NCBI GenBank assembly: GCA_009699505.1 | Contig: WLOB01000005.1 | Span: forward strand, 1-33,788 | Direction of reading: 5' to 3' | Length of the DNA: 33,788 nucleotides | Origin: Actinomycetota bacterium | GTDB taxonomy: Bacteria > Actinomycetota > Thermoleophilia > Solirubrobacterales > Solirubrobacteraceae | Part shown: piece by piece, positions 7,468 through 32,558 of the stretch | Numbering within the stretch: position 1 is the stretch's first letter | Layout: each line of letters opens with the position of its first letter | Position numbers and translations under genes: made by a program | Notes under the pieces: generated by a model | Database searches by the model: none | Told to the model about the DNA's origin: nothing | Seen by the model: the letters and a program-made list of their open reading frames with translations, nothing else

Positions 7468-7472
7468 AGGAG
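7468..7472 (+). promoter_or_regulatory. Ribosome binding site for dctA
   Basis: AGGAG lies 10 nt before ATG 7483. It supports that start over the ORF track's GTG at 7450. Confidence 0.6.
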
Positions 7473-7482
7473 CGCGACGGAC

Positions 7483-8934: not shown

Positions 8935-8971
8935 GCGGCGGCGCGCGCCGCCGACCGACCCGCGTCCCGTG

Positions 8972-9009
8972 CGCCCCGTCCGCCCCGTCCGCCCCGTGCG
9001 GGCGGGGCG
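8972..9009. repeat. Three 9-bp repeats ending in a hairpin
   Basis: CGCCCCGTC is repeated at 8972 and 8981, and the third copy at 8990 ends in G in place of C. CGCCCCG of the last copy (8990-8996) can pair with CGGGGCG (9003-9009). The unit lies 38 nt after dctA and may weaken read-through into the sensor kinase gene. There is no U-tract. Confidence 0.4.
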
Positions 9010-9090
9010 CGGTCCGTCCCGGGGACGGTCGATCCGGCCGGCCGTCGCCCGCTGCCCACCCCCGCACCGAGCACCTGGAAGCATGGCCCC

Positions 9091-11469: not shown

Positions 11470-12192
11470 TCAGGTCCCGGGGCGCCGACCGGGCACGACG
11501 ACCGTCGGCTCGACGCCCCGCGGCGCCCGGACGGCGACCGCCCCGAGGTGCTCCGGGCCCGCATCGACGTCCAGCACGTGCAGGCCGTCCGCCGCGACGC
11601 CCCGCGTGCCGGCCCACGCCGTGCTGTGCTCGTGCAGCGGCTCGGCCAGGCCGACGCCGCGGGCCTTCGTCGCGGCCTCCTTGCGGACCCACACGCGCAG
11701 GAGCGCCGCGGACCGGTCGGTCGCGGCGACGACGAGCCGCCGCTCGTCGGGGTGCAGCTCCGGCAGCAGACCCTCCAGCTCGGCGGCCGGCCGGTCGCGC
11801 GGCTCGACGTCGACCCCGACCTCGTGCGCCGCCAGGGCCACGACGGCGAGCCCCGCGGCGTGGCTCAGCGAGACGTGCAGGCCGGGGGCCTGCGGCAGCA
11901 CGGGCCGGCCGTGCGGCTCGCCGCAGGAGGGACAGGGCGCGGCGCCGAGCACGACCTCGCGGGGGGCGACGCCCAGCACGGGCGCGACCACGCTCCGCAG
12001 CCCGACGTGGGCGACGAGGTAGAGGTCGCGGTCCGCGGCCCGGCGGAACGCCGCGGCCCGCTCGCGCTCCTGGGCGGACAGCACGCCCGAGGCCTCCCGC
12101 GCCGCGGCGACCGCGTCGGCGGTGACCGGCAGGCGGCGGAGGCGGACCTCGCCGGGCGGCGGCGGGACCGTCCCGTCGCCCGCCGGGGTCAT
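11470..12192 (-). CDS. Sfp-type 4'-phosphopantetheinyl transferase
   Basis: The protein has 240 aa. It moves the phosphopantetheine arm from CoA to the active-site Ser of carrier domains, here most likely the three PCPs of the nearby NRPS. Family signatures are CPSCGEPHGRP (about 87-97), HVSLSHAAGLAVVAL, the metal-binding VGVDVEP (Asp128, Glu130) and WVRKEAATKARG (Trp168, Lys171, Glu172, Lys176). Size and motifs fit the Sfp/EntD type and not the short AcpS type. ATG 12192 overlaps the stop of the upstream ABC gene (ATGA), so it is the last gene of an ABC-ABC-PPTase operon driven from the iron-box promoter at 15.77 kb. Iron repression is therefore expected (inference). Confidence 0.93.
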   Translation of the reverse strand: MTPAGDGTVPPPPGEVRLRRLPVTADAVAAAREASGVLSAQERERAAAFRRAADRDLYLVAHVGLRSVVAPVLGVAPREVVLGAAPCPSCGEPHGRPVLPQAPGLHVSLSHAAGLAVVALAAHEVGVDVEPRDRPAAELEGLLPELHPDERRLVVAATDRSAALLRVWVRKEAATKARGVGLAEPLHEHSTAWAGTRGVAADGLHVLDVDAGPEHLGAVAVRAPRGVEPTVVVPGRRPGT

Positions 12193-14000
12193 CGCTCCCG
12201 CGCGGAGGCCCAGGCACCCCAGAGCCGCGCGTAGGGGCCGCCGGCCGCCACGAGCTCGTCGTGGGGGCCCTGCTCCACGACGCGGCCGGCCTCGAGGACG
12301 ACGACCCGGTCGGCGGTCGCGGCCTGCTTCAGCCGGTGCGCGACGACGAGCGCCGTGCGTCCCGCGAGGGCGCCGTCGGCGGAGCGCTCGAGCTCGCGGG
12401 CGCCGGCGCTGCCGGACTCCGCCGTGGCCTCGTCGAGGACGGCGACGAGCGGGTCGCGCAGGACGAGCCGCGCCAGGGCGAGCTGCTGCGCCTGCGTCGT
12501 CGTCGGCTCCCGCCCGCCCTCGCCGACGACCGTCGCGAGGCCCTCGGGGAGCGCCCGCACCCAGCCGTCCGCGCCGACGGTGGCCAGCGCCGCGTGCAGC
12601 TCGTCGTCCGTGGCGTCCGGGCGGGCCAGGCGCAGGTCGTCGCCGAGGGTGCCCGCGAAGACGTGGACCTCCTGGGTGACGAGGAGGACGGTGTCGGCCG
12701 CCCGGGTCGGCCCGAGCTCGTCGAGCGTCGCCCCGCCGATCAGGATGCTGCCGCGCGTCGGGCGGTCGATGCCGCAGACGAGGCGCGCCAGGGTCGTCTT
12801 GCCCGCGCCGGTGGTGCCGATCAGGGCGACCCGCTCGCCGGGCGCGATCCGCAGGTCGACGTCGTGGAGGACGGGGTGGCCGGGGACGTGCTCGTGGCCG
12901 ACGCCGCGCAGCACGACCTCGCCGTCGCGGGCCGTGGCCGGCTCCGCGGGGTCCTCGGGCGGCTCGATGCTCGCGACGCCGACGAGGCGGGCGAGCGCCG
13001 TCGTCGCCTCCTGGATGTCGTCCACGAGCATGAGGAGCGTCCCGATCGGGTCGAACGCGCGGTGGAAGTAGAGCGCGCCGGCGGTCGCCGTGCCGACGCT
13101 GATCGTGCCCGCGTCGACGAGCAGGAAGCCCGCGACGACGACCGCCGAGAGCCCCACGAGCTCGGCGCCGTTGAGCTTGGGGAACATCCGCGCCAGCAGG
13201 CGGAACCCGTGGAGCGCCTCGTCGCGCGCCGCGCCCGAGGTCTCGCGGACGCGCTCCAGGCGGGCGTCCCCGATCCGCAGGGCCCGCGACGTCGGCGCGC
13301 CGGCGAACGCGTCGAGCAGCTGCTGGGTGCGCTCGCCCTCGAGGACCCGCTGGCGCCGGTAGACGGGGACGGCGTCGCGCAGGTAGGCGCGCAGGGCGAG
13401 GACCTGGATCGGCGCGGCGGCCAGCGCCGCGAGCGCGAGGCGCCAGTCCAGGACGACGAGCCCGACGACGGTCAGGCCGACGGTGAGGCCGGCGCCCGCG
13501 ATCGTCGGGACCGTGGCGGAGATCGCCCGGGAGACGATCTCGACGTCGCCGCCGATCCGGCTGAGGAGGTCGCCGGAGCCCGCCCGCTCCACCCGCCGCA
13601 GCGGGATCCGGAGCGCCCGGCCGACGACGCGTTCGCGCAGGTCCGCCAGGACGGACTCGCCCAGGCGCACGACGAGCTGGCCGCCGACGCCCGTCAGGAG
13701 CGCCTGCACGAGGGCGGCCGCGAGGAGCAGGCCGGCGGCGACGGCGAGGTCGCCCGTGCCGCGGTCGTCGGCGACGATGTCGACGACGAGGCCCAGCAGC
13801 GGCGGCACCGCGAGCCCCGCGGCGGCGCCGCCCACGAGCACGAGCAGCGACGCGAGCCCGAGGCCCGGCCGGTCGGCGACGAGGCGGGCGACGACGCGGC
13901 GGGCCTCGCGCGGCTCGGCCGTGGGCAGCAGGTCGGCGGTGGCGACGGGGCGCCCGCCGTCGGGGCGGCCGCCGGTCGCGGGAACGTCCGGGGCGCTCAC
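12189..14000 (-). CDS. ABC exporter half-transporter A (intact ATP site, degenerate signature)
   Basis: The protein has 603 aa: an N-terminal exporter-type membrane domain (about 45-330, six helices expected) and an ATPase domain (about 355-603). Walker A GTTGAGKTT (Lys401), Q-loop Gln443, Walker B VAVLDEAT (Asp523, Glu524) and H-loop His555 are intact. The signature LSGGQ is replaced by PTTTQ (about 499-503). The GTG start overlaps the previous gene's stop (GTGA), so it should pair with half-transporter B. Context and the coelichelin cluster (CchG/CchI exporters) suggest siderophore export. An IrtAB-like import role is the alternative, but no siderophore-interacting reductase domain is present. 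Confidence 0.88.
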   Translation of the reverse strand: MSAPDVPATGGRPDGGRPVATADLLPTAEPREARRVVARLVADRPGLGLASLLVLVGGAAAGLAVPPLLGLVVDIVADDRGTGDLAVAAGLLLAAALVQALLTGVGGQLVVRLGESVLADLRERVVGRALRIPLRRVERAGSGDLLSRIGGDVEIVSRAISATVPTIAGAGLTVGLTVVGLVVLDWRLALAALAAAPIQVLALRAYLRDAVPVYRRQRVLEGERTQQLLDAFAGAPTSRALRIGDARLERVRETSGAARDEALHGFRLLARMFPKLNGAELVGLSAVVVAGFLLVDAGTISVGTATAGALYFHRAFDPIGTLLMLVDDIQEATTALARLVGVASIEPPEDPAEPATARDGEVVLRGVGHEHVPGHPVLHDVDLRIAPGERVALIGTTGAGKTTLARLVCGIDRPTRGSILIGGATLDELGPTRAADTVLLVTQEVHVFAGTLGDDLRLARPDATDDELHAALATVGADGWVRALPEGLATVVGEGGREPTTTQAQQLALARLVLRDPLVAVLDEATAESGSAGARELERSADGALAGRTALVVAHRLKQAATADRVVVLEAGRVVEQGPHDELVAAGGPYARLWGAWASARER

Positions 14001-15769
14001 GAGAGCACCGCCGCCCGGTAGGCGTCCTCGCGCTGCACGAGCTCCGCGTGGGTGCCCTCGGCGACGACGCCGTCGTCGCCGAGGAGGACGACGCGGTCGC
14101 AGGCCGCCAGCAGCGACGGGCTCGTGGCGACGACGACCGTGGTGGCGCCGTCGCGCAGGCGCCGGACGCCCGAGGCGATGCGCGCCTCGGTCACCGCGTC
14201 GACCGCCGTCGTCGGCTCGTGCAGCACCAGGACGGGCGGGGAGGCCGCGAGCGCGCGGGCCAGGGCGACGCGCTGGCGCTGCCCGCCGGAGAGCGACCGG
14301 CCGCGCTCGCCGACCTGGCCGTCGAGGCCGCCGGGGATCGCGCGGACGGCCTCGTCGGCGCCGCTCGCGTCGAGGACCGCGGCCAGGTCGTGCACGGGCC
14401 CGGCCGCCGCCAGGACGTTGTCGCGGACGGTGCCGGAGAAGAGCGCCGCGTCGTGGTCGGCGACGAGGACCAGGCCGCGCGCGTCGTCCAGCGCCAGGTC
14501 CGAGGTGGGCCGGCCGTCGACGCGCAGGGCGCCGGGTGGTGCCTCGCCGCGGTGGGCGAGCAGGTCGACCAGCGCGGACGAGGCGGCGGGATCGGCGGCG
14601 ACGACGCCGAGGTGCTCGCCCGCGGCGACCTGCAGGCCCGGCGTGCCGGCGGGGGTGGGGGCGACCGCGAGGGCGACGGCGGACGGGACGGCCTCGGCGC
14701 GCCCGCGAGCCGGCTCCGCGGCGCGCGGGTCCTCGCGGTCCGGCGCGGCCTGCAGGAGCGCCGAGACGCGGTCGGCGGCGGCGCGCGACTCGGCCAGCAG
14801 GGTGCTCGCGAAGGCCAGGCGCTGCAGCGGGCCGACGAGGAACTGCGTCAGGCCGACCGCGGCGACGAGCTCGCCGATGCTGATGGTGCCGTCGAGCGCG
14901 AGGCGCCCGCCGACCCAGGCGACGATCGCGAGGAACGCGCCGCTGATGAGGACGTTCGCGCCGAGCAGCAGGTTCTGGGCGACCCCGGCGCGGACGGCGG
15001 CGTCGAGGGCGCGACGGCTCGCGACGCGGTAGCGCTCGGCGCCGGCGCGCTCCGCGCCGATGCCCTTCAGGACCCGCAGGCCCGACGCCAGGTCGGTCGC
15101 CACGCCCGCGGCCTCGGCGGCGCGCGCCTGGTCGACGCCGCTGCGGCGCTCGAGCGGCCGCGCGAGGAGCTGCAGCGCGTAGAGGAGCGGCGGCGTGCCG
15201 AGGAGGACGAGCAGCCCGAGCGGCAGCGACGTCGCGAGCAGCACCGCGGCCGTCACGACGATCGCGGCGATCGCGGCCCCGCCGACGCTCACGGCCTCGA
15301 GGACGTCGACGGTGCGCCGCGCGTCGGAGCCCGCGACCGTCACCTGCGCGCCGGCGGAGCCGCCGACGTCGGCCCGGACCGCGCCCGGCCGCGGGGGCGC
15401 GGCGATGCCCGCGGCGGCGAGGACCCGGCGGGCCAGCGCGGTGCGCAGGTCGTGCTCGCCGCGCTCGAGCCCGCCGACGAGCGTCAGCAGCTGCACCCGG
15501 TAGGCCGTGGTCAGGAGCGCGAAGAGCAGGGCGAGCACCACGATCCAGAGGACGAGCTCGCCGGCGTCGCGGCGCTCGATCGCCCGGTCGACGAGCACGC
15601 CGATCAGGACGGGGACGAAGGCCTCGCAGGTCTGGTGGACGACCCCGCCGAGGGTCGAGACGACGGCCGGGCGACGGCGCTCGCGCAGGACCTGGCGCAG
15701 CAGCGGCCGGCCCCCGGCGGCGGGCACGGCGGGACCGTCCGCCCCGGGGGAGAGGGCGGGGGTGGACAC
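13997..15769 (-). CDS. ABC exporter half-transporter B (intact signature, degenerate ATP site)
   Basis: The protein has 590 aa from GTG 15769, with membrane domain about 40-330 and ATPase domain about 365-590. LSGGQRQRVALARAL (493 on) is intact. Walker A has decayed to VAADPAASSA, with no Lys or Gly pattern. The Walker B Asp is His517 (LVLHEPT), the Q-loop Gln position is His, and the H-loop His is Thr549. With half-transporter A this leaves exactly one complete composite ATP site. The start codon abuts an iron box (15770-15788). TAGCCT lies 7 nt before the GTG, so a leaderless mRNA is likely. It is the first gene of an operon with half-transporter A and the PPTase, divergent from the NRPS. 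The track's 4486-aa ORF includes it but is otherwise antisense noise. Confidence 0.88.
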   Translation of the reverse strand: MSTPALSPGADGPAVPAAGGRPLLRQVLRERRRPAVVSTLGGVVHQTCEAFVPVLIGVLVDRAIERRDAGELVLWIVVLALLFALLTTAYRVQLLTLVGGLERGEHDLRTALARRVLAAAGIAAPPRPGAVRADVGGSAGAQVTVAGSDARRTVDVLEAVSVGGAAIAAIVVTAAVLLATSLPLGLLVLLGTPPLLYALQLLARPLERRSGVDQARAAEAAGVATDLASGLRVLKGIGAERAGAERYRVASRRALDAAVRAGVAQNLLLGANVLISGAFLAIVAWVGGRLALDGTISIGELVAAVGLTQFLVGPLQRLAFASTLLAESRAAADRVSALLQAAPDREDPRAAEPARGRAEAVPSAVALAVAPTPAGTPGLQVAAGEHLGVVAADPAASSALVDLLAHRGEAPPGALRVDGRPTSDLALDDARGLVLVADHDAALFSGTVRDNVLAAAGPVHDLAAVLDASGADEAVRAIPGGLDGQVGERGRSLSGGQRQRVALARALAASPPVLVLHEPTTAVDAVTEARIASGVRRLRDGATTVVVATSPSLLAACDRVVLLGDDGVVAEGTHAELVQREDAYRAAVLS

Positions 15770-15788
15770 CGGGGTTAGGCTACCCTTG
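15770..15788 (-). promoter_or_regulatory. DtxR/IdeR-type iron box for ABC operon
   Basis: CGGGGTTAGGCTACCCTTG (plus strand) matches about 14 of 19 positions of the DtxR/IdeR consensus TTAGGTTAGSCTAACCTAA, and 13 of the last 15. On the minus strand it contains TAGCCT, a -10 element 7 nt before GTG 15769. Bound Fe-repressor would block the promoter. Confidence 0.75.
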
Positions 15789-15823
15789 CGCCGCCGGCGG
15801 GGGAGTCCGGCCCGCCGCGAACA

Positions 15824-15842
15824 TCGTGTTAGGGTCACCGAA
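15824..15842 (+). promoter_or_regulatory. DtxR/IdeR-type iron box for NRPS
   Basis: TCGTGTTAGGGTCACCGAA matches about 13 of 19 consensus positions (12 of the last 15). Its last base is the A of the NRPS ATG. TAGGGT (15830-15835) is a -10 six nt before the ATG, implying a leaderless mRNA whose promoter is the operator itself. Confidence 0.7.
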
Positions 15843-18800
15843 TGACTGGGACGTGCCCCCCCGAGCGCCCCGAGTCCCGCCAGGACGACGAGCGGCACCG
15901 TCTCCTCGTGGAGCTCGCCACGGACGACCGCGTCGTGGTCGACGAGACGTGGCCCGCGGCGTTCCTGCGCCGTGCCGCCGAGCGCCCCGACGCGGTCGCC
16001 GTCGTCTGCGAGGAGCAGGCCTGGACGTACGCCGAGCTCGACGCCCGCTCCGCCCGGATCGCCCGCGAGCTCCTGCGCCGCGGGGTCGGTGCCGAGGACG
16101 TCGTCGGGGTCGCCGTGCCGCGCTCGTGCGACATGGTCGCCGCCCTCCTCGGCGTGATGCGCGCCGGCGCGGCGTACCTGCCCCTCGACCTCGACCACCC
16201 CGCCGAGCGCGTCGCGTACATGCTGGAGGACGCCGGGGTGCGGGCCGTCCTGACGACCGCCGCCCTGCGGGACGACCTGCCCGCGGTCGACGGCCTGCGG
16301 CCGGTCCTGCTCGACGCGTTGCCCGCGGGGGCGGCCCCCGCCGCCGCCACCGCCGCCCCCGACCCGGCCGGCCCCGCCTCGATCCACGCCGCCGCCTACG
16401 TCATCTACACCTCCGGCTCGACGGGCCGGCCGAAGGGCGTCGTCCTGTCGCACGAGGGGATCGGCAGCCTGATCGCCACCGCCGTCGACCGCCTCGGCGT
16501 GGACGGGGACAGCCGCGTCGTGCAGTTCGCGTCCGTCGGCTTCGACGTCGCGGTCTGGGACCTCTGCATGGCGCTCGGCGTCGGCGGGCGCGTGGTCGTC
16601 GTGCCGTCGGACCGCCGCGTCGCCGGCCCCGCGCTCACCCACTACATCGCCGACCACGGCGGGACGCACATGATCCTGCCGCCGTCGCTCGTCGGCGCGC
16701 TGCCCGACGACTGCACGCTGCCGGACGGGGCCGTCCTCGTCGTCGGCACGGAGGCCGTCCCCGCCGCGGTCATCGCCCGCTGGGGCGCGCGGCTGCGGGT
16801 CGTCGTCGCCTACGGGCTGACGGAGGCGACCGTCAACTCGACCCTGTGGACGGCGCGCCCCGACCACGAGGGGCCCGTGCCGATCGGCGTCCCGGACCCC
16901 AACACCCGCTGCTACGTCCTGGACGAGGCGCTCGAGCCGGTGCCGGTGGGGACGGAGGGCGAGCTCTACGTCGGCGGCCGCGGCCTCGCGCGGGGCTACC
17001 TCGGGCGGCCGGCCCTGACCGCCGGGCGGTTCGTCGCCGACCCGCACGCCGCGGCGGCCGGGATCCCCGGCGCCCGCATGTACCGCACGGGCGACCGGGC
17101 GCGGTGGCGGCCCGACGGGACGATCGACTTCCTCGGCCGCGGCGACGGCCAGGTCAAGGTCCGCGGCCACCGCGTCGAGACGGGCGAGGTCGAGGCCGCG
17201 CTCGTGCGCCACCCCGGCGTGCGCCAGGCGGCGGTCGTCGTGCGCGAGGACGCGGCCGCGGACGGGCCGGCGGTCGCCCGGCTCGTCGGCTACGTCGTCC
17301 CCCGCGACGCCGCGGACGCCCCGGACCCCGCGGTGCTGCGCGACCACGTCGCCGCGGCGCTGCCCGCGGCGATGGTGCCCTCCGCGGTCGTCCTCGTCGA
17401 GGGCGCGCTGCCGCTGACCCCGAACGGCAAGCTCGACCGTCGGGCGCTGCCGGCCCCGGACTTCTCCGCGCTGGCCGGCGACGACGCGCCGCGGGACGAG
17501 CGCGAGCGGGTCGTCGCCGAGCTCGTCGCCGCCACGCTCGGGCTCCCGCGCGTCGGGATCCACGACGACTTCTTCGCCCTCGGCGGCGACAGCATCGTGG
17601 CGATCGGCCTCGTCGGCCGCGCCCGGGAGGCCGGGCTGCTCCTGCGCCCGCGCGACGTCTTCGACCGCCGCACGCCGGCGGGGCTCGCCGAGGTCGCCCG
17701 CGAGGCGCACGGCACCGTCCACGACGACGACGGCGTCGGCCACGTGCCCGCCACGCCGATCGTGCACTGGCTGCGCGAGCTCGGCGGCAGCATCGGCGCG
17801 TTCCACCAGGGCGTCCTCCTGCGCGCCCCCGCGGACCTCCACGACGAGGGGCTGCGCACGCTCGTCCAGGCCCTGCTCGACCACCACGACCTGCTCCGCG
17901 CCCGGCTGCACCGCGGCGACGGCTGGAGCCTCGACGTCCTGCCGCGCGGCGCCGTCGCCGCGGTCGACGTGCTGCACCGGGTCGACGTGGGGGAGGAGCC
18001 GGACGCCCTGCGCCGCGCGACCGCCGCGGCCCGCGCGGCCGGCGTGGCGCGGCTCTCGCCCGACGCCGGCCGGACGATCGACGTCACCTGGCTGCGCCCG
18101 GCCGACGGCGGCGAGGGCCGGCTGCTCGTCCTGGTCCACCACCTCGTCGTCGACGGGGTGACGTGGCGCGTCCTGCGCGAGGACCTCGAGCGGGCCTGGT
18201 GCGCCGTCGTGGAGGGCCGCGGTGTGACGCTCGCCCCCGTCGCCACGTCCTTCCGCACCTGGGCGCGACGCCTGCAGGCCGCCGGCACGACGGGCGCCCG
18301 GCGCGGGGAGCTCGAGGGGTGGCGGGACGTCGCCGCGACGCCGGACCCGCTCCTCGGCGACCGCGCGCTCGACCCGGCGCGCGACCTCGTCGGCGGCTCC
18401 GGGGCGCTCGAGGTGCGGCTCGGCCCCGACGACGTCGAGCCGCTCCTGGGCCGCCTGCCCGCGAGCTACCGCGGCACGGTCAACGACGTGCTCCTGACCG
18501 CCCTGGCCGTCGCGGTCGACCGCTGGCGGGCGACGCGCGGCGTGGCCGGCGCGGGCGCCCCCGTGCTCGTCGACCTGGAGGGCCACGGCCGCGAGGACGT
18601 GTTCGAGGACGTCGACGTCGCCCGCACGCTGGGGTGGTTCACGACCGTCTTCCCCGTCCGCCTGGCGCCGGGGTCGGTCGACTGGGCGTCGTTCGTCGAC
18701 GGCGGCGCGGCGGCCGGCGACGCGCTGCGGCGCGTGAAGGAGGGCCTGCGCGCCTTCCCCGACCGCGGCCTCGGCCACGGCGTCCTGCGCCACCTGGACC

Positions 18801-21800: not shown

Positions 21801-24800
21801 GCGACCTCGTCCGCTGGGCCGCCGACGGCGCGCTCGAGTTCCGGGGTCGCACCGACCACCAGGTCAAGCTCCGCGGCAACCGCGTCGAGCCCGGCGAGAT
21901 CGAGGCCCGGATCGCGCGCCTGGACGGCGTCGCCCAGGCCGCCGTCGTCGTGCGGGACGCGGCGCCCCGGCTCGTGGCGTACGTCGTGCCCGGCCGCGGC
22001 GGCTCCCGGTCCGGGGCCGCGGCGACCGGACCGGCACGCCTCGACCCCGACGTGCTGCGCGCCGCGGTGGAGGCCGTCCTGCCCGCCGCCCTCGTCCCGG
22101 ACGCGTTCGTCGTGCTGGACGGCCTGCCGCTGAGTCCGAACGGCAAGGTCGACCGGGCGGCGCTGCCCGCCCCGGCGCGCGGGGCCGGGCGGGCGACGGG
22201 ACGGGACGAGGCGGACCGGGCCACGACCTCGCAGGACGGCCTCAGGCGGTCCGCCGACGACGTGGCCGCGGCGTCCCCGGCGGTCGTCGACGTCCTGCGC
22301 GAGGTCTTCGCGGACGTCCTCGGCCTGGACGACGTGGCGCCGGAGGACGACTTCTTCCGCCTCGGCGGCGACTCCATCCTCTCCATCACCGTCACGATCC
22401 GCGCGCGTCGCCGCGGCGTCCACGTGCAGGCGCGCGACGTCTTCCGGCACCGCACGCCCGCGGCGCTCGCGGCGGAGGCCCGCGTCGAGCCCGGCGACGA
22501 CGCCGCGCCGAACGGGGCGACCACGCGGCCCGGGGCGACCGCCGCCGCCGCGACGGCCGCCGGCGCTCCCACGGACCCGGCCGGTCCCGGCGCGCGCCCC
22601 GACGACGGCGTCGGCCCCGTGCCGCTCCTCCCGATCGTGCACCGCCTGCGCGAGGCGGGCGGGACGATCGACCGCTTCGCCCTGTCCATGCTCGTCGCGG
22701 TGCCCGCCGGGGCGACCCGCGACGAGCTCGCGGCGACCCTGGGGGCGGTCGTCGACCACCACGCCGGCCTGCGGCTGCGCCTGGACCACCCCCACCCCGC
22801 CGCGTGGGCGCTCGACGCCGGCGCGCCCGGGAGCGTCGACGCCGGCGGGCTGCTGCGGCGCGCGGACGCCGCGGGCCTGGCCGGCGCCGCGCTCCGCGAG
22901 CTCGTGACCGCGAACTCCGACGCGGCTGCCTGCCGCCTGGACCCCGGGGCCGGCCGGACCCTCGACGCCGTCTGGCTCGACGCGGGTCCCGACCACGACG
23001 GTCGGCTCGTCCTGACCGTCCACCACCTCGCCGTCGACGGGGTCTCGTGGCGCATCCTCTTCGAGGACCTCGCCGCCGCCTGGGAGGCGGTCCGCGCCGG
23101 CACGACGCCGGAGCTCGAGCCCGCGACGACCTCGCTGCGCCGGGCCGGCCGCGCCGCCGCCGAGGCCGCGGGCACCCCGGAGCGCCTGCGCGAGCTGTCG
23201 CACTGGGAGGCCGAGCTGCGCCCCGGCGCCGAGCTCGTCCCGGGCGCCGCGCCGCAGGGCACGACGGCCTCGATCGTCGCCACCGCCACCGAGGTCGGCC
23301 CGGCCGACACCGCCGCGCTCCTCACCGACGTCCCGGCCGCCACCGGCTCCGACGTCACCGAGGTGCTCCTCGCGGCGCTCGCGGTCGCCGTCGCCCGCTG
23401 GCGCGCCGGTCGCGGCGACGGGCCCGCCCCGCTGCTCGTCGACCTCGAGCGCCACGGCCGCGACCCCCTCGCACCCGACGTCGACCTCTCGCGCACCGTC
23501 GGCTGGCTCACGAGCGTGCAGCCCGTCCGCCTGCCCGGGGTCGACCCGGCCGACGTGCTGTCCGCGCTGCGCGGCACCGTCGAGCGCGTCCGCGCCGCGC
23601 CGGAGAACGGCGTCGGCCACGGGCTGCTGCGGCACCTCGACCCGCAGGGCGCGACGGTCCTGCGCGGCGCGGCGGCCGCCCAGGTCCAGGTGAACTACTT
23701 CGGCCGGTTCCCCGCGTCGACGGGCGCCCCGTGGACCCCCGCGCCGGAGCAGGACGCGCTCGTCCCCGGCGGCGACCCCGGCCAGGCCCGGCCGCACCTG
23801 CTCGAGCTCGACGTCGTCGGCGAGGAGCGCCCGGGCGGCACCGTGCTGCGCGCGACGTTCTCCCGCACCACGGACGACCTGGGCGACGACGACCTCGCCG
23901 CGATCCGCGACGGCTGGGCGACGGCGCTGCGCGAGCTGCGCGCCGCCGCGGACGGGATCGTCCCGGAGCTCCGCGCCGCCGACCTGCGCACGGTCGGGCT
24001 GACCCAGGACGAGCTCGACCTCGTCGTGGACCGCAGCCCCGTCCCGGTCGACGACGTCTGGTCGCTTGCGCCGCTGCAGGAGGGGCTGTACTTCCACTCC
24101 GTCTTCGACGCCGGCGACCTCGACCCGTACACCCTGCAGACGGTCTACGAGATCGACGGCGGCGTCGACCTCGACCGGCTCCGCGCGGCCTGCGCAACGC
24201 TCCTGCGCCGCCACGCCGTGCTGCGCGCCGCGTTCCAGTCCGACGGGCTGCCGCGGCCGGTGCAGGTCGTCGGCCGCGACGTGGCGATGCCGATCCGCGA
24301 GCTCGACCTCGCCGACGCCACGCCCGAGGAGCGCCGCGCCGAGCTCGAGCGGGTCCTCGCCGCCGACCGGGCGGAGCGCTTCGACCTGGCGGCCCCGCCG
24401 CTCTTCCGCATGCTCGTCGTGCGCCTGGGCGGCGGTCGCGACCGGCTCGTCGTCACGAACCACCTCGTCCTCTGGGACGGCTGGTCGCAGGGGCTCTTCC
24501 GCGACGAGCTGCTGACCCTCCTCGCGTCCGCGGGCGACGACGCGGCGCTCGACCCGACCGGCTCCTACGCCGACCACCTCGCGTGGCTGGCCGACCGCGA
24601 CGTCCCCGCCGCCGAGGAGGCGTGGCGGACGGCGCTCGCCGGCTTCGAGGAGCCCACCCTGATCGGACCCGCCGGGCGCACGGACCCCGTGCTGCCCGAG
24701 AGCCGCCGGACCGCCCTGACCGCCGCCCTGACCGCGCGCCTGACGGACGCCGCGCGCGACGCGGGCGTGACGCTGAACGCGGTGCTGACCGCCGCCTGGG

Positions 24801-27598
24801 GCCTCGTCCTGGGCAGCACGCTCGGCCGCGACGACGTCGCGTTCGGCGTCACCGTGGCCGACCGCCCGGCCGAGGTCGACCGCGTCGAGCGGATCCTCGG
24901 CCTCTTCATCAACACGGTCCCCGACCGCGTGCGCCTGCACCCGGCGGAGACCGTCCGCGAGCTGCTGCGCCGCCGGCAGGACGAGCGGACCGCGCTCATG
25001 GGCCACGAGCACCTCGGCCTCGGCGCGATCCAGCGCGCCGCGGGGACGGGGTCCGGTGCGTTCTTCGACACGCTCTTCGTCCTGCAGAACTTCGGCGGCG
25101 CGGACGACGCGTCGCTGGCGGAGCTGCGCGAGCGTCACGGTGCGCAGGTGGTCGGCGGCGTCGACGCGACGCACTACCCCCTGACGCTCGTGGCGACCCC
25201 GGGCCCGCGCCTGCGGCTGCTGCTCGACCACCGCCCGGACGTGCTGGACCGCGACGCGGCCGAGACGATCCTGGCGCGCTACGTCGCCGTCCTCGAGCGG
25301 CTCGTGGACGACCTCGACGCGCCGACGGCCCGGATCGACGTCCTGCTCGACGCGGAGCGCGCCGACGACGAGGCCGCGTGGGCCGTCGCCGACCGCGACG
25401 TCCCCGACGACACGGTCGCCGAGCTGCTCGCCGCGCAGGCCGCGCGGACGCCGGACCTGCTCGCCCTCGTCTCCGGCGACGAGCGCCTGACGTACGCCGA
25501 GCTCGACGACCGCGTCCACCGCTTCGCCCGCCTGCTGCTCGAGCACGGCGCCGGCCCCGAGGCGACGGTCGCGCTCGCGCTGCGCCGCTCCTCCGACGCC
25601 GTGGCCGCCCTCTTCGCGGTCCTGGCGACGGGCGCGGCGTACCTGCCCATCGACCTCGACCACCCCGCCGAGCGCATCGCGCTGATGCTCGAGGACGCCG
25701 CCCCGGTGTGCGTGCTCACGACGAGCGGTGCGGCGCGCGCGCTGCCGGACGACGGGACGCGGGCGGCCGCGCCGTCGCCGCAGGACGGCGGCGACCCGGA
25801 GTCGTGCGACGACACCGGATCGGCGCCCGTCGGCCCGCGGTCGGCCGGCGGAGCCCTCCCGGTCCCGCGGGTCCTCCTCGACGACCCCGCGGTGGTCGAC
25901 CGGCTCGCCGCGCTCCCGGGCACCCCGCTCGACGACGACGAGCGTCCCGGGTTCGCGCCCGGCACGCCCGGCCGGCTCGAGCACCCCGCCTACGTCATCT
26001 ACACCTCCGGCTCGACCGGTCGCCCGAAGGCGGTGGTCACCCCGCACCGCGGCCTGACGAACATGCAGGTCAACCACCGCGAGGCGATCTTCGAGCCCGT
26101 GATCGCCGCCGCCGGCCGCCGGCTGCGGATCGCCCACACGGTCTCCTTCGCGTTCGACATGTCGTGGGAGGAGCTGCTCTGGCTCGTCGAGGGCCACGAG
26201 GTCCACGTCTGCGACGAGGACCTGCGCCGCGACGCCGAGGCCCTGGTCGCCTACTGCGACGCGTACCGCATCGACGTCGTGAACGTCACCCCGACCTACG
26301 CGCACCACCTCTTCGACCAGGGGCTGCTCGACGGGGCGGGGACGTCGTCGACGGCCGACGATCCCGCGGACCGGTCCGCGCGGGCGGGGGACGCGGCTCC
26401 GGCCGACGTCGTCGCCGACCACGGGGCGTCGGCGGACGACGCGGTCGCCGGTACGGCGCCGGGACGGGAGCACCGCGCCCACCGGCCGGCCCTCGTCCTG
26501 CTCGGCGGCGAGGCGGTCTCCGACGCCGTCTGGACCCGGCTGCGCGAGACGGACGGGACCCTCGGCTACAACCTCTACGGGCCGACGGAGTACACGATCA
26601 ACACGCTCGGCGCGGGCACGGACGAGAGCGCGACCCCGGCGGTCGGGCGCCCGATCCTGAACACCCGCGCGCACGTCCTCGACGGGGCGCTGCGGCCCGT
26701 GCCGCCCGGCGCGCCCGGGGAGCTCTACATCGCCGGGATCGGCCTGGCCCGCGGGTACCACGACCGGCCGGCGCTGACCGCCGCGCGGTTCGTCGCCGAC
26801 CCGTTCGGCGCGCCCGGCGAGCGCATGTACCGCACGGGCGACCTCGTCCGGCGGCGCGCCGACGGCATCATCGACTTCCTCGGCCGCACGGACGACCAGG
26901 TCAAGATCCGCGGCCACCGGGTCGAGCTCGGCGAGGTCGAGTCCGCGCTCGACGACCTGCCCGGTGTGGCGCAGGCGGCGGTCGTGGTCGACGCCGGGGC
27001 GACCGACGGCGGCGCGCCCGGGGTGGGCGACGGGTCCGCCGCGACCGGCGACGGGCGCGCGGCCGACCGTCCGCCCGCGGCCGGCGATGGGCCCGCGGGC
27101 GACGGCGCGGCCGGGACAGCGGCGGGTGCCGCGGCGCCCGCGGTGGCCCGGCTGCTCGGGTACGTCGTGCCGGACGGCGAGGCGCCCGACGACCTCGGCG
27201 GACGCCTGCGCGACGCGCTGAAGGACCGCCTGCCGGAGTACATGGTCCCCGCCGCCGTCGTGGTCGTCGACGCCCTGCCGCTGACGATCAACGGCAAGCT
27301 CGACGTGCGGGCACTGCCCCGCCCCGAGCTCGACGCGGGTGGCGCGGGCGGCGCGCCGTCCACGCCGGACGAGGAGCTCGTCGCGGCGCTCTACGGCGAG
27401 GTCCTGGGCCTCGACCGCGTCGGCGTCGAGGACTCGTTCTTCGACCTCGGCGGCCACTCCCTGCTCGCCGTCCTGCTCGTCGGCAGGGCACGTAAGCGCC
27501 TCGACGTCGCCGTCAGCGCCCGCGACGTCTTCGAGCAGCCGACGGTCGCGGGCCTCGCGGCGCGGCTGAGCGCGCGGCGCGCGGAGGCCGGGGACTGA
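15842..27598 (+). CDS. Trimodular hydroxamate-siderophore NRPS (A-T-E, C-A-T-E, C-A-T)
   Basis: 3918 aa. Module 1: A1 (about 33-540; [11 protein letters not shown] at 189, catalytic Lys530), PCP1 LGGDS (Ser584), E1 (HHLVVDG from His766, NYLG at 1004). Module 2: C2 (from about 1120; HHVISDG, His1283/1284), A2 (about 1607-2115, Lys2102), PCP2 LGGDS (Ser2178), E2 (HHLAVDG from 2394, NYFG at 2618). Module 3: C3 (from about 2734; NHLVLWDG, His2874), A3 (about 3192-3830, Lys3819), PCP3 LGGHS (Ser3873). It ends there with no thioesterase, reductase or terminal condensation domain. Codes read by hand against GrsA: A1 DVWIVGAVNK, A2 DMAWLGVVQK, A3 DMENLGLINK; the last is the known N5-hydroxyornithine code. 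Two E domains predict D-D-L stereochemistry. The architecture equals that of CchH (coelichelin). Acidic Ala/Gly/Asp-rich inserts interrupt C2 and A3. A leaderless start at the iron box is likely. Confidence 0.93.
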
Positions 27599-27617
27599 CC
27601 CGCGGCGGGCCGGTCCC

Positions 27618-27652
27618 GTCCGGCGCCGGCCGGACCCGCCACCGGGCGGGTC
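27618..27652. terminator. Two adjacent hairpins after the NRPS gene
   Basis: GTCCGGC (27618-27624) pairs with GCCGGAC (27629-27635), and GACCCGCC (27633-27640) pairs with GGCGGGTC (27645-27652), each over a 4-nt loop. They overlap by three bases, so they may be alternatives. They directly follow the NRPS stop. Confidence 0.5.
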
Positions 27653-27658
27653 GGGGGG

Positions 27659-27694
27659 CGCCCTACCCCGTCCGTCAGCCCACGGGGTAGGGCG
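27659..27694. terminator. Bidirectional hairpin overlapping the formyltransferase stop
   Basis: CGCCCTACCCCGT (27659-27671) and ACGGGGTAGGGCG (27682-27694) form a perfect 13-bp stem. The 10-nt loop holds the formyltransferase stop codon (27675-27677). It sits between the convergent NRPS and formyltransferase genes, so it can serve both. Confidence 0.65.
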
Positions 27695-28628
27695 TCAGGT
27701 AGCCGCCCATGCGGGTGAAGTACTCCGCGCCCGTCATCACGGTGCCGTCCGGCGTGCGGAGCCGCTGGATCACGAGGCCGCGGTTCAGCCCCTTGTGCGG
27801 CTGCGGGCCCGCGACGATCGCGACGCCGTCGCCCTCGCGGTAGAAGATCCGCCCGCCCGTGCCGCCGTAGACCTGGCGGGAGACCGAGGCCTCGAGGATG
27901 CCGATCCGCTCCGTGCCCCGGTGCGTGAACGCGTTGGGGTACGGGTCGGTCTGGGCGCGCACGAGCCGCTCGAGCTCCTCCGCCGGCCACGACCAGTCGA
28001 TGCGGTTCTCCTCGTCCGTCCGCTTGTGGAAGAACGACGCCTGCGAGAGGTCCTGCGGGATCGGCGTGTAGTCCCCGGACTCCATCTTCTCGAGCGACTC
28101 GAGGGTCAGCGGGCCGAACAGCGCGAGCGTCTTGTGGAAGAGGTCCGCGGTCGTGTCCGTCGGGCCGACCTCGACGCTCGCCTGCCCCACGACGTCGCCC
28201 TGGTCGAGGCCCGCGCTCATGAGGTGGGCGGTGATCCCGACCTCGGGCTCGCCGTTGACCAGCGCCCAGTTCAGCGGCGCGAACCCGGCGTACTTCGGCA
28301 GGAGCGCGTCGTGCGTGTTCAGCGTGCCCAGGCGCGGGATCGAGAAGATCTCCGGCGCGATCCACCGACGCCAGTTGATCGCCACCGCGACGTCGGCGTC
28401 GGCCTCCCGGATGCGGGCGGCCAGCTCGTCGTCGTTCGGGATCTCGCGCTCCACGACGGGGATCCCGTGCTCCCGGGCGAGCTCGCCGACGTGGTCGTTC
28501 CAGATCCCCTCGTACGGGTCGTCCCCGTCGGGGTGCGTGACGAGCAGGACGACCTCGTGGCGCGACGCCAGGAGCTTCGTCAGCAGGTCGTGACCCCAGG
28601 TCTGGTAGCCGAAGAGGACGATGCGCAT
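27675..28628 (-). CDS. N5-hydroxyornithine formyltransferase (Fmt-like)
   Basis: The protein has 317 aa and is of the Fmt/ArnA formyltransferase fold. The catalytic triad is visible as Asn104, His106 (LNTHDALLPKYAGFAPLNW) and Asp142 (SAGLDQGDVVG), close to Asn108/His110/Asp146 of E. coli Fmt. A C-terminal OB-like domain follows (IDWSWPAEELERLVRA). Its place beside an ornithine N-hydroxylase and a CchH-like NRPS argues for 10-formyl-THF-dependent formylation of N5-hydroxyornithine, as for CchA and FxbA, and against initiator Met-tRNA formylation. ATG 28628 shares its A with the stop of a 16-codon upstream ORF (TGATG) and has GGAGG 7 nt upstream. The track's longer 583-aa form reads through the promoter and antisense to the thioesterase. 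Confidence 0.9.
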   Translation of the reverse strand: MRIVLFGYQTWGHDLLTKLLASRHEVVLLVTHPDGDDPYEGIWNDHVGELAREHGIPVVEREIPNDDELAARIREADADVAVAINWRRWIAPEIFSIPRLGTLNTHDALLPKYAGFAPLNWALVNGEPEVGITAHLMSAGLDQGDVVGQASVEVGPTDTTADLFHKTLALFGPLTLESLEKMESGDYTPIPQDLSQASFFHKRTDEENRIDWSWPAEELERLVRAQTDPYPNAFTHRGTERIGILEASVSRQVYGGTGGRIFYREGDGVAIVAGPQPHKGLNRGLVIQRLRTPDGTVMTGAEYFTRMGGYLTPYPVG

Positions 28629-28678
28629 CAGCGGGCCTCCGGGCGGTCGGGGTGGCTGGGCGGGGCGAAGGGGGACAT
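28628..28678 (-). CDS. Putative 16-codon leader peptide of the formyltransferase
   Basis: ATG 28678 on the minus strand opens a 16-codon frame (MSPFAPPSHPDRPEAR) that ends in TGATG, its stop sharing an A with the formyltransferase ATG. The start lies directly at the edge of the iron box. TACCCT, a fitting -10, is 7 nt upstream, the same geometry as the ABC operon start. A leaderless mRNA would begin on this codon, and ribosomes would pass to the main gene by termination-reinitiation, helped by GGAGG inside the leader. The ORF is too short for coding statistics. It could be a chance frame in a short 5' UTR. Confidence 0.5.
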   Translation of the reverse strand: MSPFAPPSHPDRPEAR

Positions 28679-28697
28679 CGAAGTTAGGGTAGCCTGA
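28679..28697. promoter_or_regulatory. Shared DtxR/IdeR-type iron box, formyltransferase and thioesterase
   Basis: CGAAGTTAGGGTAGCCTGA matches about 13 of 19 consensus positions. It gives a -10 on both strands: TACCCT leftward, 7 nt before ATG 28678, and TAGCCT (28690-28695) rightward, 5 nt before GTG 28701. One bound repressor would close both divergent promoters. Confidence 0.7.
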
Positions 28698-28700
28698 TCC

Positions 28701-29504
28701 GTGCGGACGGCGCATCCTCCGGTGCCCCCGCCCCTCACCGTGACCTCCTCCTCGCCGTCCCCCTGGATCCGCCGCTACCGGCCCGCGTCGGAGGGCCGCA
28801 CGCCGCTCGTCTGCCTCCCCCCGGCCGGGGCGTCCGCCTCGTTCTTCGCCGCCCTCTCGCGGGACGCGCCGGCCGCGGTCGACCCGTGGGCGATCGCCCT
28901 CCCCGGCCGCGAGGCGCGCCTCGGCGAGCCCGCGATGACCACGATGGCCGTGCTGGCCGACGCGGTCGCGGGCGAGCTGGTCGACCGGCTCGACGGGCCG
29001 GCGGTCCTGCTCGGGCACAGCATGGGTGGCTCCGTCGCCCACGAGGTCGCCCGGCGGCTCGAGGCCCGGGCCGCCGGCTCCGTCCTGCACCTCGTCGTCG
29101 GCGGCCGCGGCGGCCCCGCGACCCAGCGCGCGCTGCGCCCGGACGGCGTGCCGGACGACGCCGCGCTCGTCTACGGGCTGGCCGCGGCCGGCGACACGCC
29201 GCGCGAGCTGCTCGAGGACCCCGACGTCCTCGACCTCCTGCTGCCGCCGCTGCGCGCGGACTATGCGCTGCTCGCCGCCTACGTCCCCGACGACGCCCCG
29301 CGCCTCACGGCCGGCATCACGGCGGTCGTCGGGCGGGACGACCCGACGACGACCGAGGCCGGCGTCGCGACCTGGGCGGCGGCCACCGACGGGCCGTTCG
29401 ACGCCCGCACCGCCCCGGGCGGGCACCTCTTCCTCGCCGAGCGCACCGATGAGGTCGTCGCGGCAATCGCGGCGGCCGTCGCGGGCGCGGCCGACCGGGC
29501 CTGA
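28701..29504 (+). CDS. Stand-alone (type II-like) thioesterase
   Basis: The protein has 267 aa of the GrsT/type II thioesterase family: LVCLPPAGASASFFAAL, AIALPGREARLGEP, nucleophile elbow GHSMGG, a late Asp (VVGRDDPTT) and His (APGGHLFLAE). Such enzymes remove wrong or stalled acyl groups from PCPs. Because the NRPS has no terminal release domain, this protein may also free the finished peptide. That is inference, by analogy with the separate hydrolase CchJ in the coelichelin cluster. The GTG at 28701 follows the iron box by 3 nt, suggesting a leaderless start. GTGs at 28722 and 28740 would also keep the whole domain. Confidence 0.88.
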   Translation: MRTAHPPVPPPLTVTSSSPSPWIRRYRPASEGRTPLVCLPPAGASASFFAALSRDAPAAVDPWAIALPGREARLGEPAMTTMAVLADAVAGELVDRLDGPAVLLGHSMGGSVAHEVARRLEARAAGSVLHLVVGGRGGPATQRALRPDGVPDDAALVYGLAAAGDTPRELLEDPDVLDLLLPPLRADYALLAAYVPDDAPRLTAGITAVVGRDDPTTTEAGVATWAAATDGPFDARTAPGGHLFLAERTDEVVAAIAAAVAGAADRA

Positions 29505-29571
29505 CCGGGCGGACGCCGACGGCGCAGGGCCCCGGGGCAGGTCCGATTGCGTCTCCCATCGGCCCCGACCG

Positions 29572-29586
29572 GCGGACGCCGTCCGC
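29572..29586. other. Short hairpin before the mbtH promoter
   Basis: GCGGAC (29572-29577) pairs with GTCCGC (29581-29586) over 3 nt in the 176-nt gap between thioesterase and mbtH. It may insulate the mbtH promoter from read-through. Support is weak. Confidence 0.3.
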
Positions 29587-29609
29587 GGGCGGCCGACGTT
29601 CGGGTCCCC

Positions 29610-29628
29610 TTCTGTTAGGTTGCCCGAA
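29610..29628 (+). promoter_or_regulatory. DtxR/IdeR-type iron box for mbtH operon
   Basis: TTCTGTTAGGTTGCCCGAA matches about 13 of 19 consensus positions in the same register as the other three boxes (GTTAGGnTnnCC). TAGGTT (29616-29621) is the likely -10. Unlike the others it lies 52 nt before its gene, leaving room for a normal leader. Confidence 0.6.
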
Positions 29629-29669
29629 GAACACGCGACCTCCCGTCGTAGCTCGATCCCCCCATCCTC

Positions 29670-29673
29670 GGAG
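29670..29673 (+). promoter_or_regulatory. Ribosome binding site for mbtH
   Basis: GGAG lies 7 nt before ATG 29681. This is the only rightward gene of the siderophore locus with a conventional leader. Confidence 0.55.
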
Positions 29674-29680
29674 CTGCCGC

Positions 29681-29935
29681 ATGACGAACCCCTTCGACGA
29701 CCCCGACGGCACCTTCTCCGTGCTCGTCAACGACGAGGGCCAGCACTCCCTGTGGCCCGCGTTCGCCGCCGTCCCCGACGGCTGGACCCCCGTCCTCGAG
29801 GGCGCCACGCGCGACGACGCGGAGCGGTGGGTCGAGGAGCACTGGACCGACCTGCGCCCGGCGTCCCTCGTGCGCGAGCACGAGGCGGCGACCGTCGCGG
29901 ACGCCCCGGCCGCCGGGACCGGGGGTGCCGCATGA
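29681..29935 (+). CDS. mbtH: MbtH-like NRPS accessory protein
   Basis: The protein has 84 aa. It contains the family core NPFDDPDGTFSVLVNDEGQHSLWP and VPDGW, and a C-terminal EEHWTDLRPASL. MbtH proteins bind adenylation domains and are needed for their folding or activity; here the partner should be one or more A domains of the adjacent NRPS. His stands where Tyr is common in the QYSLWP motif. A short Ala/Gly tail extends the usual 65-75 residues. The stop overlaps the ATG of the ornithine monooxygenase (ATGA), coupling their translation. It is the counterpart of CchK in the coelichelin cluster. Confidence 0.95.
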   Translation: MTNPFDDPDGTFSVLVNDEGQHSLWPAFAAVPDGWTPVLEGATRDDAERWVEEHWTDLRPASLVREHEAATVADAPAAGTGGAA

Positions 29936-31233
29936 GCACGGAGCGCCGCGAGCCCGCGGTCGACGTCGCCGGGATCGGCTTCGGTCCCTCCAACCTGTCG
30001 CTCGCCATCGCCCTGCACGAGACGGAGGGCACGAGCGCCCGCTTCTTCGAGCGCCAGGCCGAGTTCGGCTGGCACCGCGGGATGCTCCTCGAGGACGCGA
30101 CGATGCAGGTGTCGTTCCTCAAGGACCTCGTGACGATGCGCGATCCCGCGAGCGACTTCAGCTTCGTGTCGTACCTGACGGACCGCGGGCGGCTCGCCGA
30201 CTTCATCAACCGCAAGACGCTCTTCCCGCTGCGGATCGAGTTCCACGACTACCTCTCGTGGGCCGCGGCCCGCGTGGACGACCTCGTCTCCTACGGGTCC
30301 GAGGTCGTCGACGTCCGCCCGGTCGAGGAGGACGGCGAGGTGCACGCGTTCGACGTCGTCGCCCGCGAGCCCGACGGGGGCACCACGGTCACCCGCGCCA
30401 CCACGGTCGTCGTCGGCTGCGGCCTGACGCCGGTCGTCCCCGCGGGCGTGGCCTGCTCCGCTCGGATCTGGCACACGTCGGAGCTGCTCGGCCGCGTCGA
30501 CGAGCTCGCCGGGAGCGACCGGACGCCGGAGCGGTTCGTCGTCGTCGGCGCCGGCCAGAGCGCGGCGGAGGCCGTCGACCACCTCTACCGCCGGTTCCCC
30601 GACGCCGAGGTCTGCTCCGTCTTCTCGCGCTTCGGGTACTCCCCGGCGGACGACTCGCCGTTCGCCAACCGCGTCTTCGACCCCGAGGCGGTCGACGAGT
30701 TCCACCGCGCCCCGGAGAGCGCGAAGCGCGACATCCTCGACTACCACCGCAACACGAACTACTCCGTGGTCGACGGCGACCTCATCGAGTCGCTCTACGC
30801 CGCGCACTACCAGGAGCTCGTGGAGGGGCGCGAGCGGCTGCGCATCATGAACGTCTCCCGGGTGACGGAGCAGGTCGAGGGCGAGGACGGCGTGCGGCTG
30901 CACGTCGAGAGCTCCACGACGCTCGAGACCGAGGTCCTCGACTGCGACGCCGTCGTCTACGCCACGGGCTACCGGCCGACGGACCCCGTCGCGCTCCTGG
31001 GCAGCGCGGGCGGGCTCGTGGCGCTGGAGGACGACCTGCCCGTCGTCGAGCGGGACCACGGCCTGCGGCTGCGCGTCCCGACCGCCGGGGCCCGCCTGTT
31101 CCTGCAGGGCGCGGACGAGCACGCCTTCGGCCTGACCTCGACGCTGCTGTCGACCGTGGCGGTGCGCGCGGGCGAGATCGCGGGCGCCATCACCGGGGCG
31201 AAGGGCCCCGTGGCGGCGGGCGTCGGCGACTGA
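29932..31233 (+). CDS. L-ornithine N5-monooxygenase
   Basis: The protein has 433 aa and belongs to the PvdA/SidA/CchB flavin N-hydroxylases, which use FAD, NADPH and O2 to make N5-hydroxy-L-ornithine in the cytosol. Motifs are the FAD site GIGFGPSNLSLA (about 14-25), MQVSFLKDLVTMRDP, the NADPH site GAGQSAAE (206 on), HRNTNYSVVD (Asn274 region, typical of ornithine enzymes) and ATGYRP (344 on). The NTNYSVVD motif and the hydroxyornithine code of NRPS A3 both favour ornithine over lysine. ATG 29932 overlaps the mbtH stop (ATGA). Its product should feed NRPS module 3 directly and the formyltransferase for other positions. Confidence 0.95.
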   Translation: MSTERREPAVDVAGIGFGPSNLSLAIALHETEGTSARFFERQAEFGWHRGMLLEDATMQVSFLKDLVTMRDPASDFSFVSYLTDRGRLADFINRKTLFPLRIEFHDYLSWAAARVDDLVSYGSEVVDVRPVEEDGEVHAFDVVAREPDGGTTVTRATTVVVGCGLTPVVPAGVACSARIWHTSELLGRVDELAGSDRTPERFVVVGAGQSAAEAVDHLYRRFPDAEVCSVFSRFGYSPADDSPFANRVFDPEAVDEFHRAPESAKRDILDYHRNTNYSVVDGDLIESLYAAHYQELVEGRERLRIMNVSRVTEQVEGEDGVRLHVESSTTLETEVLDCDAVVYATGYRPTDPVALLGSAGGLVALEDDLPVVERDHGLRLRVPTAGARLFLQGADEHAFGLTSTLLSTVAVRAGEIAGAITGAKGPVAAGVGD

Positions 31234-32461: not shown

Positions 32462-32547
32462 GCCGCCGACCCACGGTCGGTCGCCCCGTCGTCCCGCGTC
32501 CCGCGTCGGCCGCGACCCGTCCGTCCGCCCTCGTCACCACCGCCATC

Positions 32548-32552
32548 AGGAG
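32548..32552 (+). promoter_or_regulatory. Ribosome binding site for purE
   Basis: AGGAG lies 6 nt before ATG 32559 and confirms this start. Confidence 0.65.
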
Positions 32553-32558
32553 CACCGC

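What the first reader, a model, noticed from the sequence alone, without database searches (positions are those of the whole stretch)
11470..31233. Coelichelin-like siderophore locus with two unrecognised A-domain codes
The NRPS has the CchH module order and partners equivalent to CchA, CchB, CchG/CchI and CchK, seen directly by motifs. A3 reads DMENLGLINK, the known hydroxyornithine code. A1 (DVWIVGAVNK) and A2 (DMAWLGVVQK) do not match the formyl-hydroxyornithine or threonine codes I recall for CchH. The inferred product is a D-X, D-Y, L-hydroxyornithine hydroxamate peptide, probably with a formylated hydroxyornithine, and likely a new variant.
Basis: partly seen in the sequence, partly recalled or inferred. 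Interest (0 to 1): 0.8.

Follow-up and report, generated by a model that had tools for sequence, protein, structure and literature searches.

The report
Patulibacter iron-scavenger peptide synthesis cluster
This is a gene cluster in the bacterium Patulibacter that almost certainly makes a new small iron-grabbing peptide related to coelichelin and foroxymithine, and comparing it with about 100 relatives shows that the enzyme domain which adds the unusual amino acid hydroxyornithine has lost the catalytic histidine that other such domains keep.

Summary
11470-31233 is a hydroxamate-siderophore locus: PPTase, two ABC exporters, a three-module NRPS (A-T-E-C-A-T-E-C-A-T), formyltransferase, thioesterase, MbtH and ornithine monooxygenase, with four iron-box-like operators at its promoters. 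The organism is a Patulibacter MAG. CchH-type NRPSs extracted here read DINYWGGIG/DFWNIGMVH/DMENLGLIN, so A1 and A2 do differ from CchH. But A1 is not unrecognised: DVWI[VIL]GA[VT]N is the module-1 code of dozens of four-module NRPSs, many encoded beside a formyltransferase, so N5-formyl-N5-hydroxyornithine is the likely substrate. A2 (DMAWLGVVQ) is new: it descends from serine-type A domains and was seen only in two Patulibacter. Trees place the NRPS in the four-module (foroxymithine-like) lineage, without module 4 and its terminal C domain; it is not a CchH orthologue. The unreported point is C3: its HHxxxDG motif reads HLVLWDG. In the sample 91 of 102 C domains before a hydroxyornithine A domain lack that catalytic His, against 2 of 195 others (both Cy-like); all 11 exceptions are the last A-containing module of their ORF. 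I infer that these C domains acylate the hydroxylamine nitrogen, forming the hydroxamate. New variant of a known kind.

The parts
11470..12192 (-). Sfp-type phosphopantetheinyl transferase that would arm the NRPS carrier domains
   Evidence: Pfam ACPS 7e-11; also next to the cluster in the E1 relative, 76% id
12189..14000 (-). ABC exporter, CchG/CchI-like
   Evidence: Pfam ABC_membrane + ABC_tran; 44-48% id to exporters flanking CchH-type NRPSs
13997..15769 (-). second ABC exporter, CchG/CchI-like, overlapping the first; GTG start at 15769 read from sequence
   Evidence: Pfam; sequence
15774..15788 (+). iron-box-like operator, exporter promoter
   Evidence: GTTAGGNTNNCCTAA, 2 mismatches; window 9 matches vs 1.37 expected, 0 of 100 shuffles reach 9
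15828..15842 (+). iron-box-like operator abutting the NRPS start
   Evidence: 1 mismatch; conserved in L026
15842..27598 (+). three-module NRPS A-T-E-C-A-T-E-C-A-T
   Evidence: Pfam, domain mapping
15938..17461 (+). A1, code DVWIVGAVN(K): fhOrn-type
17735..19054 (+). E1, HHLVVDG motif intact
19163..20533 (+). C2, canonical HHVISDG
20648..22186 (+). A2, code DMAWLGVVQ(K): unassigned, serine-derived
22610..23896 (+). E2, HHLAVDG motif intact
24041..25315 (+). C3, condensation domain without the catalytic second His; AF2 model pLDDT 86.9, fold of a normal C domain
24458..24481 (+). motif NHLVLWDG (HHxxxDG site); Leu2875 (24464-24466) in place of the catalytic His
25403..27334 (+). A3, code DMENLGLIN(K): N5-hydroxyornithine
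27675..28628 (-). CchA-like N5-hydroxyornithine formyltransferase
   Evidence: Pfam Formyl_trans_N/C; N104, H106, D142 invariant in the alignment
28683..28697 (+). iron-box-like operator between formyltransferase and thioesterase
   Evidence: 1 mismatch
28701..29504 (+). stand-alone thioesterase (GHSMG), release or editing
   Evidence: Pfam Thioesterase 2e-39; motif
29614..29628 (+). iron-box-like operator upstream of MbtH
   Evidence: 1 mismatch
29681..29935 (+). MbtH-like protein, CchK-like
   Evidence: Pfam MbtH 1.5e-24
29932..31233 (+). ornithine N5-monooxygenase, CchB-like; ATGA overlap with MbtH
   Evidence: Pfam Lys_Orn_oxgnase 2e-110; start

Best explanation
An iron-regulated NRPS cluster making a hydroxamate peptide siderophore. 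Ornithine is N5-hydroxylated by the monooxygenase and partly formylated by the formyltransferase (inferred from families). Module 1 loads and epimerises N5-formyl-N5-hydroxyornithine, module 2 adds and epimerises an unidentified residue X from a serine-derived pocket, module 3 adds L-N5-hydroxyornithine. The His-less C3 joins the D-fhOrn-D-X acyl chain to the N5-hydroxylamine of hydroxyornithine rather than its alpha-amine, making the internal hydroxamate; a hydroxylamine is unprotonated at neutral pH, so no general-base His is needed (mechanism inferred). The stand-alone thioesterase releases the product and the ABC pair exports it. Product: D-fhOrn-D-X-(N5)L-hOrn, possibly capped by a second D-fhOrn on the free alpha-amine as in coelichelin, which would give three hydroxamates.
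For: Gene content. Iron-box-like operators at all four promoters. A1 groups with module-1/module-4 A domains of the four-module lineage, 99-100 SH-aLRT, many encoded beside a formyltransferase and monooxygenase. A2 nests in the serine A2 clade, 100 and 98. C3 belongs to one His-less clade shared with CchH-type and exochelin-like NRPSs (wider sample). 91/102 C domains before hOrn lack the His vs 2/195 others; all 11 exceptions are the last A-containing module of their ORF. Direct alignment to the PvdL C domain puts Leu on the catalytic His without a gap. The only C/E-family domains found in each of four Patulibacter/Siliceabacter genomes are those of this NRPS, so no fourth module in trans was found.
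Against: No chemistry: product, X, linkage and stoichiometry unproven. The N5-linkage of hOrn in coelichelin, exochelin, erythrochelin and foroxymithine is from my own knowledge, not checked in a source here. His loss can be one evolutionary event (AU test), so the statistics are not independent. A trimodular product with only two hydroxamates would be a weak chelator. The own MAG is about 75% complete.
Confidence: 0.7

Rival explanations
1. A true coelichelin cluster (CchH orthologue) with drifted A1 and A2 codes.
For: Same domain order and similar length; same kinds of partners.
Against: Trees put C3 and A1 with the four-module lineage, not with CchH (97-100 SH-aLRT); A2 groups with serine, not threonine, domains.
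Confidence: 0.07
2. C3 is catalytically dead and the hydroxamate forms by uncatalysed or thioesterase-assisted attack of the hydroxylamine on the upstream thioester.
For: Catalytic His absent; hydroxylamines are strong nucleophiles at neutral pH (general chemistry).
Against: The domain keeps an intact predicted fold, the DG motif and clade-specific conserved residues such as D2867, W2878 and R3131, so it is probably under selection; several such NRPSs have no TE found at the end of the line.
Confidence: 0.2
3. C3 makes an ordinary alpha-amide with a non-His mechanism; His loss is drift in one lineage and says nothing about linkage.
For: His loss may be a single event; the contribution of this His varies between C domains (general knowledge).
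Against: Conserved as non-His through 71 deduplicated members, while hOrn modules in other C clades, within the same NRPSs, keep it (L269, L271, L272-L276).
Confidence: 0.15

Closest known systems
Coelichelin cluster (cchA-K, CchH)
   Same: A-T-E-C-A-T-E-C-A-T NRPS, A3 code DMENLGLIN, His-less C3, MbtH, paired ABC exporters, formyltransferase and monooxygenase, iron-box-like operators
   Different: A1 DVWIVGAVN not DINYWGGIG; A2 DMAWLGVVQ not DFWNIGMVH; other phylogenetic lineage; no CchCDEF importer or CchJ-type esterase in the window; stand-alone TE and PPTase present
Four-module fhOrn/haOrn-Ser-hOrn-fhOrn/haOrn NRPSs (foroxymithine/erythrochelin type by module logic, from my own knowledge; named organisms here: Actinorugispora, Amycolatopsis jejuensis, Wenjunlia, Actinophytocola)
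   Same: Closest by C3, A1 and A2 trees; A1 code, A3 code, His-less C3; formyltransferase beside monooxygenase
   Different: Module 4 and the terminal C domain absent; position 2 recoded from serine
Exochelin-like NRPSs (L230-L233, L277-L279)
   Same: fhOrn start, hOrn modules preceded by His-less C domains
   Different: Five or more modules with beta-Ala-type and Thr codes

Membership tests
Hydroxamate peptide siderophore NRPS cluster | Ornithine N5-monooxygenase, N-acyl/formyltransferase, NRPS with hOrn code, exporter, iron-regulated promoter | tested here: met
   (iron regulation inferred from operators only)
Coelichelin (CchH) | Trimodular A-T-E-C-A-T-E-C-A-T | tested here: met
Coelichelin (CchH) | A codes DINYWGGIGK / DFWNIGMVHK / DMENLGLINK | tested here: not met
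   Only A3 agrees; codes extracted from CchH-type relatives L210-L219, L250, L268
Coelichelin (CchH) | Phylogenetic grouping of C3 and A domains with CchH | tested here: not met
Coelichelin (CchH) | CchCDEF importer and CchJ esterase in the cluster | tested here: not met
   Absent from the window; the contig ends at both window edges, so elsewhere in the genome is untested
Four-module foroxymithine/erythrochelin-type lineage | DVWI[VIL]GA[VT]N module 1 and tree position | tested here: met
Four-module foroxymithine/erythrochelin-type lineage | Fourth module (DVF[IV]LGAVN) plus terminal C domain | tested here: not met
   NRPS ends after T3; the C/E domains of this NRPS are the only ones found in four genomes
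Four-module foroxymithine/erythrochelin-type lineage | Product with diketopiperazine and N5-linked hOrn | not testable with these tools
   needs chemistry

The most novel reading that the evidence does not exclude
Loss of the catalytic His in HHxxxDG marks a distinct subtype of NRPS condensation domains that bond the incoming peptide to the N5-hydroxylamine of hydroxyornithine (hydroxamate-forming C domains), so that linkage in hydroxamate siderophores can be read from sequence; Patulibacter C3 is one of them.
Probability: 0.5. Interest if true: 0.7.

Novelty: new variant of a known kind. Interest (0 to 1): 0.5.

Why it matters
It adds a siderophore cluster from Patulibacter with a new residue at position 2 and a shortened assembly line, showing how three- and four-module hydroxamate siderophores may interconvert. 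The His-less C domain pattern, if it means hydroxamate formation, would let genome miners predict how hydroxyornithine is linked, explain how assembly lines choose between two nucleophiles on one residue, and give a natural test of what the C-domain His does.

Tried and rejected
Whole A3 domain as a genome query gave nothing at 1e-140; replaced by a 68-residue hOrn core. Full-text search for the code strings found no paper. Searches for a description of His-less or hydroxamate-forming C domains found none (PMC10212144 read), but the library lacks most subscription papers. Convergent loss of the His: the tree put L272/L274 (SELILLDG/SQLILLDG) apart, but holding all His-less rows together gave a higher likelihood, p-AU 0.64, so two origins are not claimed. 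Substrate of A2 could not be assigned: neither the code nor the tree names it. The hypothesis that every hOrn module has a His-less C was rejected: 11 terminal ones keep the His. A fourth module in trans was looked for and not found. The iron-box pattern used was refined after seeing the hits, which used the recalled IdeR consensus, so its statistics are somewhat optimistic.
Full report
What is there. The window is one whole contig (C445) of a 4.37-Mb, 75%-complete MAG; the nearest named records are Patulibacter MAG E1 (L033) and Patulibacter medicamentivorans (L034). Between 11470 and 31233 lies a siderophore locus: PPTase, two ABC exporters, NRPS, formyltransferase, thioesterase, MbtH, ornithine monooxygenase. 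purK and purE follow at 31286-33065.

The NRPS. 3918 residues, A-T-E-C-A-T-E-C-A-T, ending after the third carrier domain with no TE. Both E domains and C2 have HHxxxDG.

Comparison with CchH. NRPSs of about 3650 aa with the same layout occur in about 40 of 199 Streptomycetales genomes (from frame length and hOrn core). Ten Streptomyces cases, two Lentzea and Nonomuraea gerenzanensis were read: DINYWGGIG, DFW[NC][IV]GMVH (DVWCIAMVH in one Lentzea), DMENLGLIN. I take these as coelichelin synthetases from architecture, length and recalled codes; no named S. coelicolor sequence was available. So A1 and A2 of the window differ from CchH.

A1 is a known kind. DVWI[VIL]GA[VT]N opens dozens of NRPSs in Streptomyces and Pseudonocardiaceae, and DVF[IV]LGAVN sits in their module 4; position 2 is usually the serine code DVWHFSLVD, position 3 DMENLGLIN. 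Formyltransferase and monooxygenase genes lie next to many of them. In the A-domain tree the window's A1 falls among these module-1 domains (99 and 100 SH-aLRT), well apart from DINYWGGIG. With a formyltransferase in the cluster, fhOrn is the best reading.

A2 is the real unknown. It lies inside the serine A2 clade (100), in a divergent subclade (98) with DVLDFGAVQ, DVLSFGAIQ, DPQDFGVVQ and DAWTSGFVQ. Position 2 has therefore diverged widely in relatives of this lineage; DMAWLGVVQ was found only in the window and the E1 MAG.

Lineage. C3 groups with P. medicamentivorans and Siliceabacter (99) inside the four-module set (97), not with CchH. These three-module NRPSs lack module 4 and the terminal C domain of their relatives. 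The four C/E-family domains of this NRPS are the only ones found in each of the four Patulibacter/Siliceabacter genomes. I infer loss of module 4, or an ancestral three-module state, giving a CchH-like layout independently.

The C3 motif. C3 reads NHLVLWDG at the HHxxxDG site. Alignment with the PvdL C domain of known structure puts Leu2875 on the second, catalytic His with no gap; that this His is the active-site residue is stated in PMC10212144. An AlphaFold2 model of C3 (pLDDT 86.9, pTM 0.84) matches solved C domains (TM up to 0.87 over the query). Over all loci read, 91 of 102 C domains before a hydroxyornithine A domain have L, F, M, V or Q there, against 2 of 195 before other A domains; those two carry a D-x-D-type motif like that of heterocyclisation domains. 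The sample is centred on hydroxyornithine NRPSs and its members are related, so the Fisher p is not a probability of independent events. The His-less domains form one clade in the first tree (100). In the wider set one small group (SELILLDG/SQLILLDG) stood apart, but one origin is not rejected. The 11 exceptions are all the last A-containing module of their ORF; the ones checked in the trees lie outside the His-less clade, L245/L247 as its sister in the first tree and L269/L240 among other C clades. Several NRPSs hold both kinds (L240, L269, L271-L276). Clade-specific residues include D2867, W2878, N2979, R3049 and R3131.

Why this may be. From my own knowledge, in coelichelin, exochelin MS, erythrochelin and foroxymithine the residue before hydroxyornithine is joined to its N5 as a hydroxamate. 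In kineochelin the last residue is a C-terminal cyclised N5-hydroxyornithine (PMC13238742), where the chain must enter at the alpha-amine; I could not read its NRPS. The sequence pattern fits: His absent where the hydroxylamine is the nucleophile, present where the amine is. A hydroxylammonium has a pKa near 6, so a base is not needed. This is inference; no source describing it was found in the open library.

Regulation. The recalled IdeR consensus, then the core GTTAGGNTNNCCTAA, hits the promoters of the exporter pair (15774), NRPS (15828), formyltransferase/thioesterase (28683) and MbtH-monooxygenase (29614); 9 strand matches vs 1.37 expected. Relatives carry similar sites at matching genes, and CchH loci have them too.

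Verdict. Observation confirmed; interpretation partly supported. My estimates: siderophore cluster about 0.95; A1 = fhOrn about 0.8; D-fhOrn-D-X-hOrn backbone about 0.75; N5-linkage at hOrn about 0.6; extra fhOrn as in coelichelin about 0.4.

Noticed in passing
window 7450-11387: Dicarboxylate symporter (SDF) followed by a sCache/PAS sensor kinase and a DpiA-like response regulator: a citrate/dicarboxylate-type two-component system just upstream of the siderophore locus.
   Followed up: no
window 3002-5983: PhaC-type polyhydroxyalkanoate synthase with a small alpha/beta hydrolase and a MaoC-like hydratase on the minus strand.
   Followed up: no
L283-L310, last domain of many of the NRPSs: Four-module relatives end in a C domain whose HHxxxDG reads HY, GY or similar (e.g. 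MHYLGVDEW): another His-less C domain, perhaps for diketopiperazine release.
   Followed up: partly
window, A3 domain (about 25403-27334): The window's A3 is about 100 residues longer than in the E1 relative (L026) owing to low-complexity Ala/Asp/Gly-rich inserts; the NRPS frame is about 94 residues longer overall.
   Followed up: no
L035-L059 (Lentzea and others): In many Lentzea records a CchA-like formyltransferase and ornithine monooxygenase lie back to back with no NRPS found within 10 kb; in L. nigeriaca the CchH-type NRPS is on a contig of a different length.
   Followed up: partly
L025 3447-6766: In the E1 Patulibacter MAG several unrelated genes lie between the monooxygenase and purK, where the window has none.
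   Followed up: no
L230-L233, L277-L279: Exochelin-like NRPSs (fhOrn, beta-Ala-type code, hOrn, Thr, hOrn and a further residue) in genomes of the order that holds Pseudonocardiaceae and Mycobacteriaceae relatives.
   Followed up: partly
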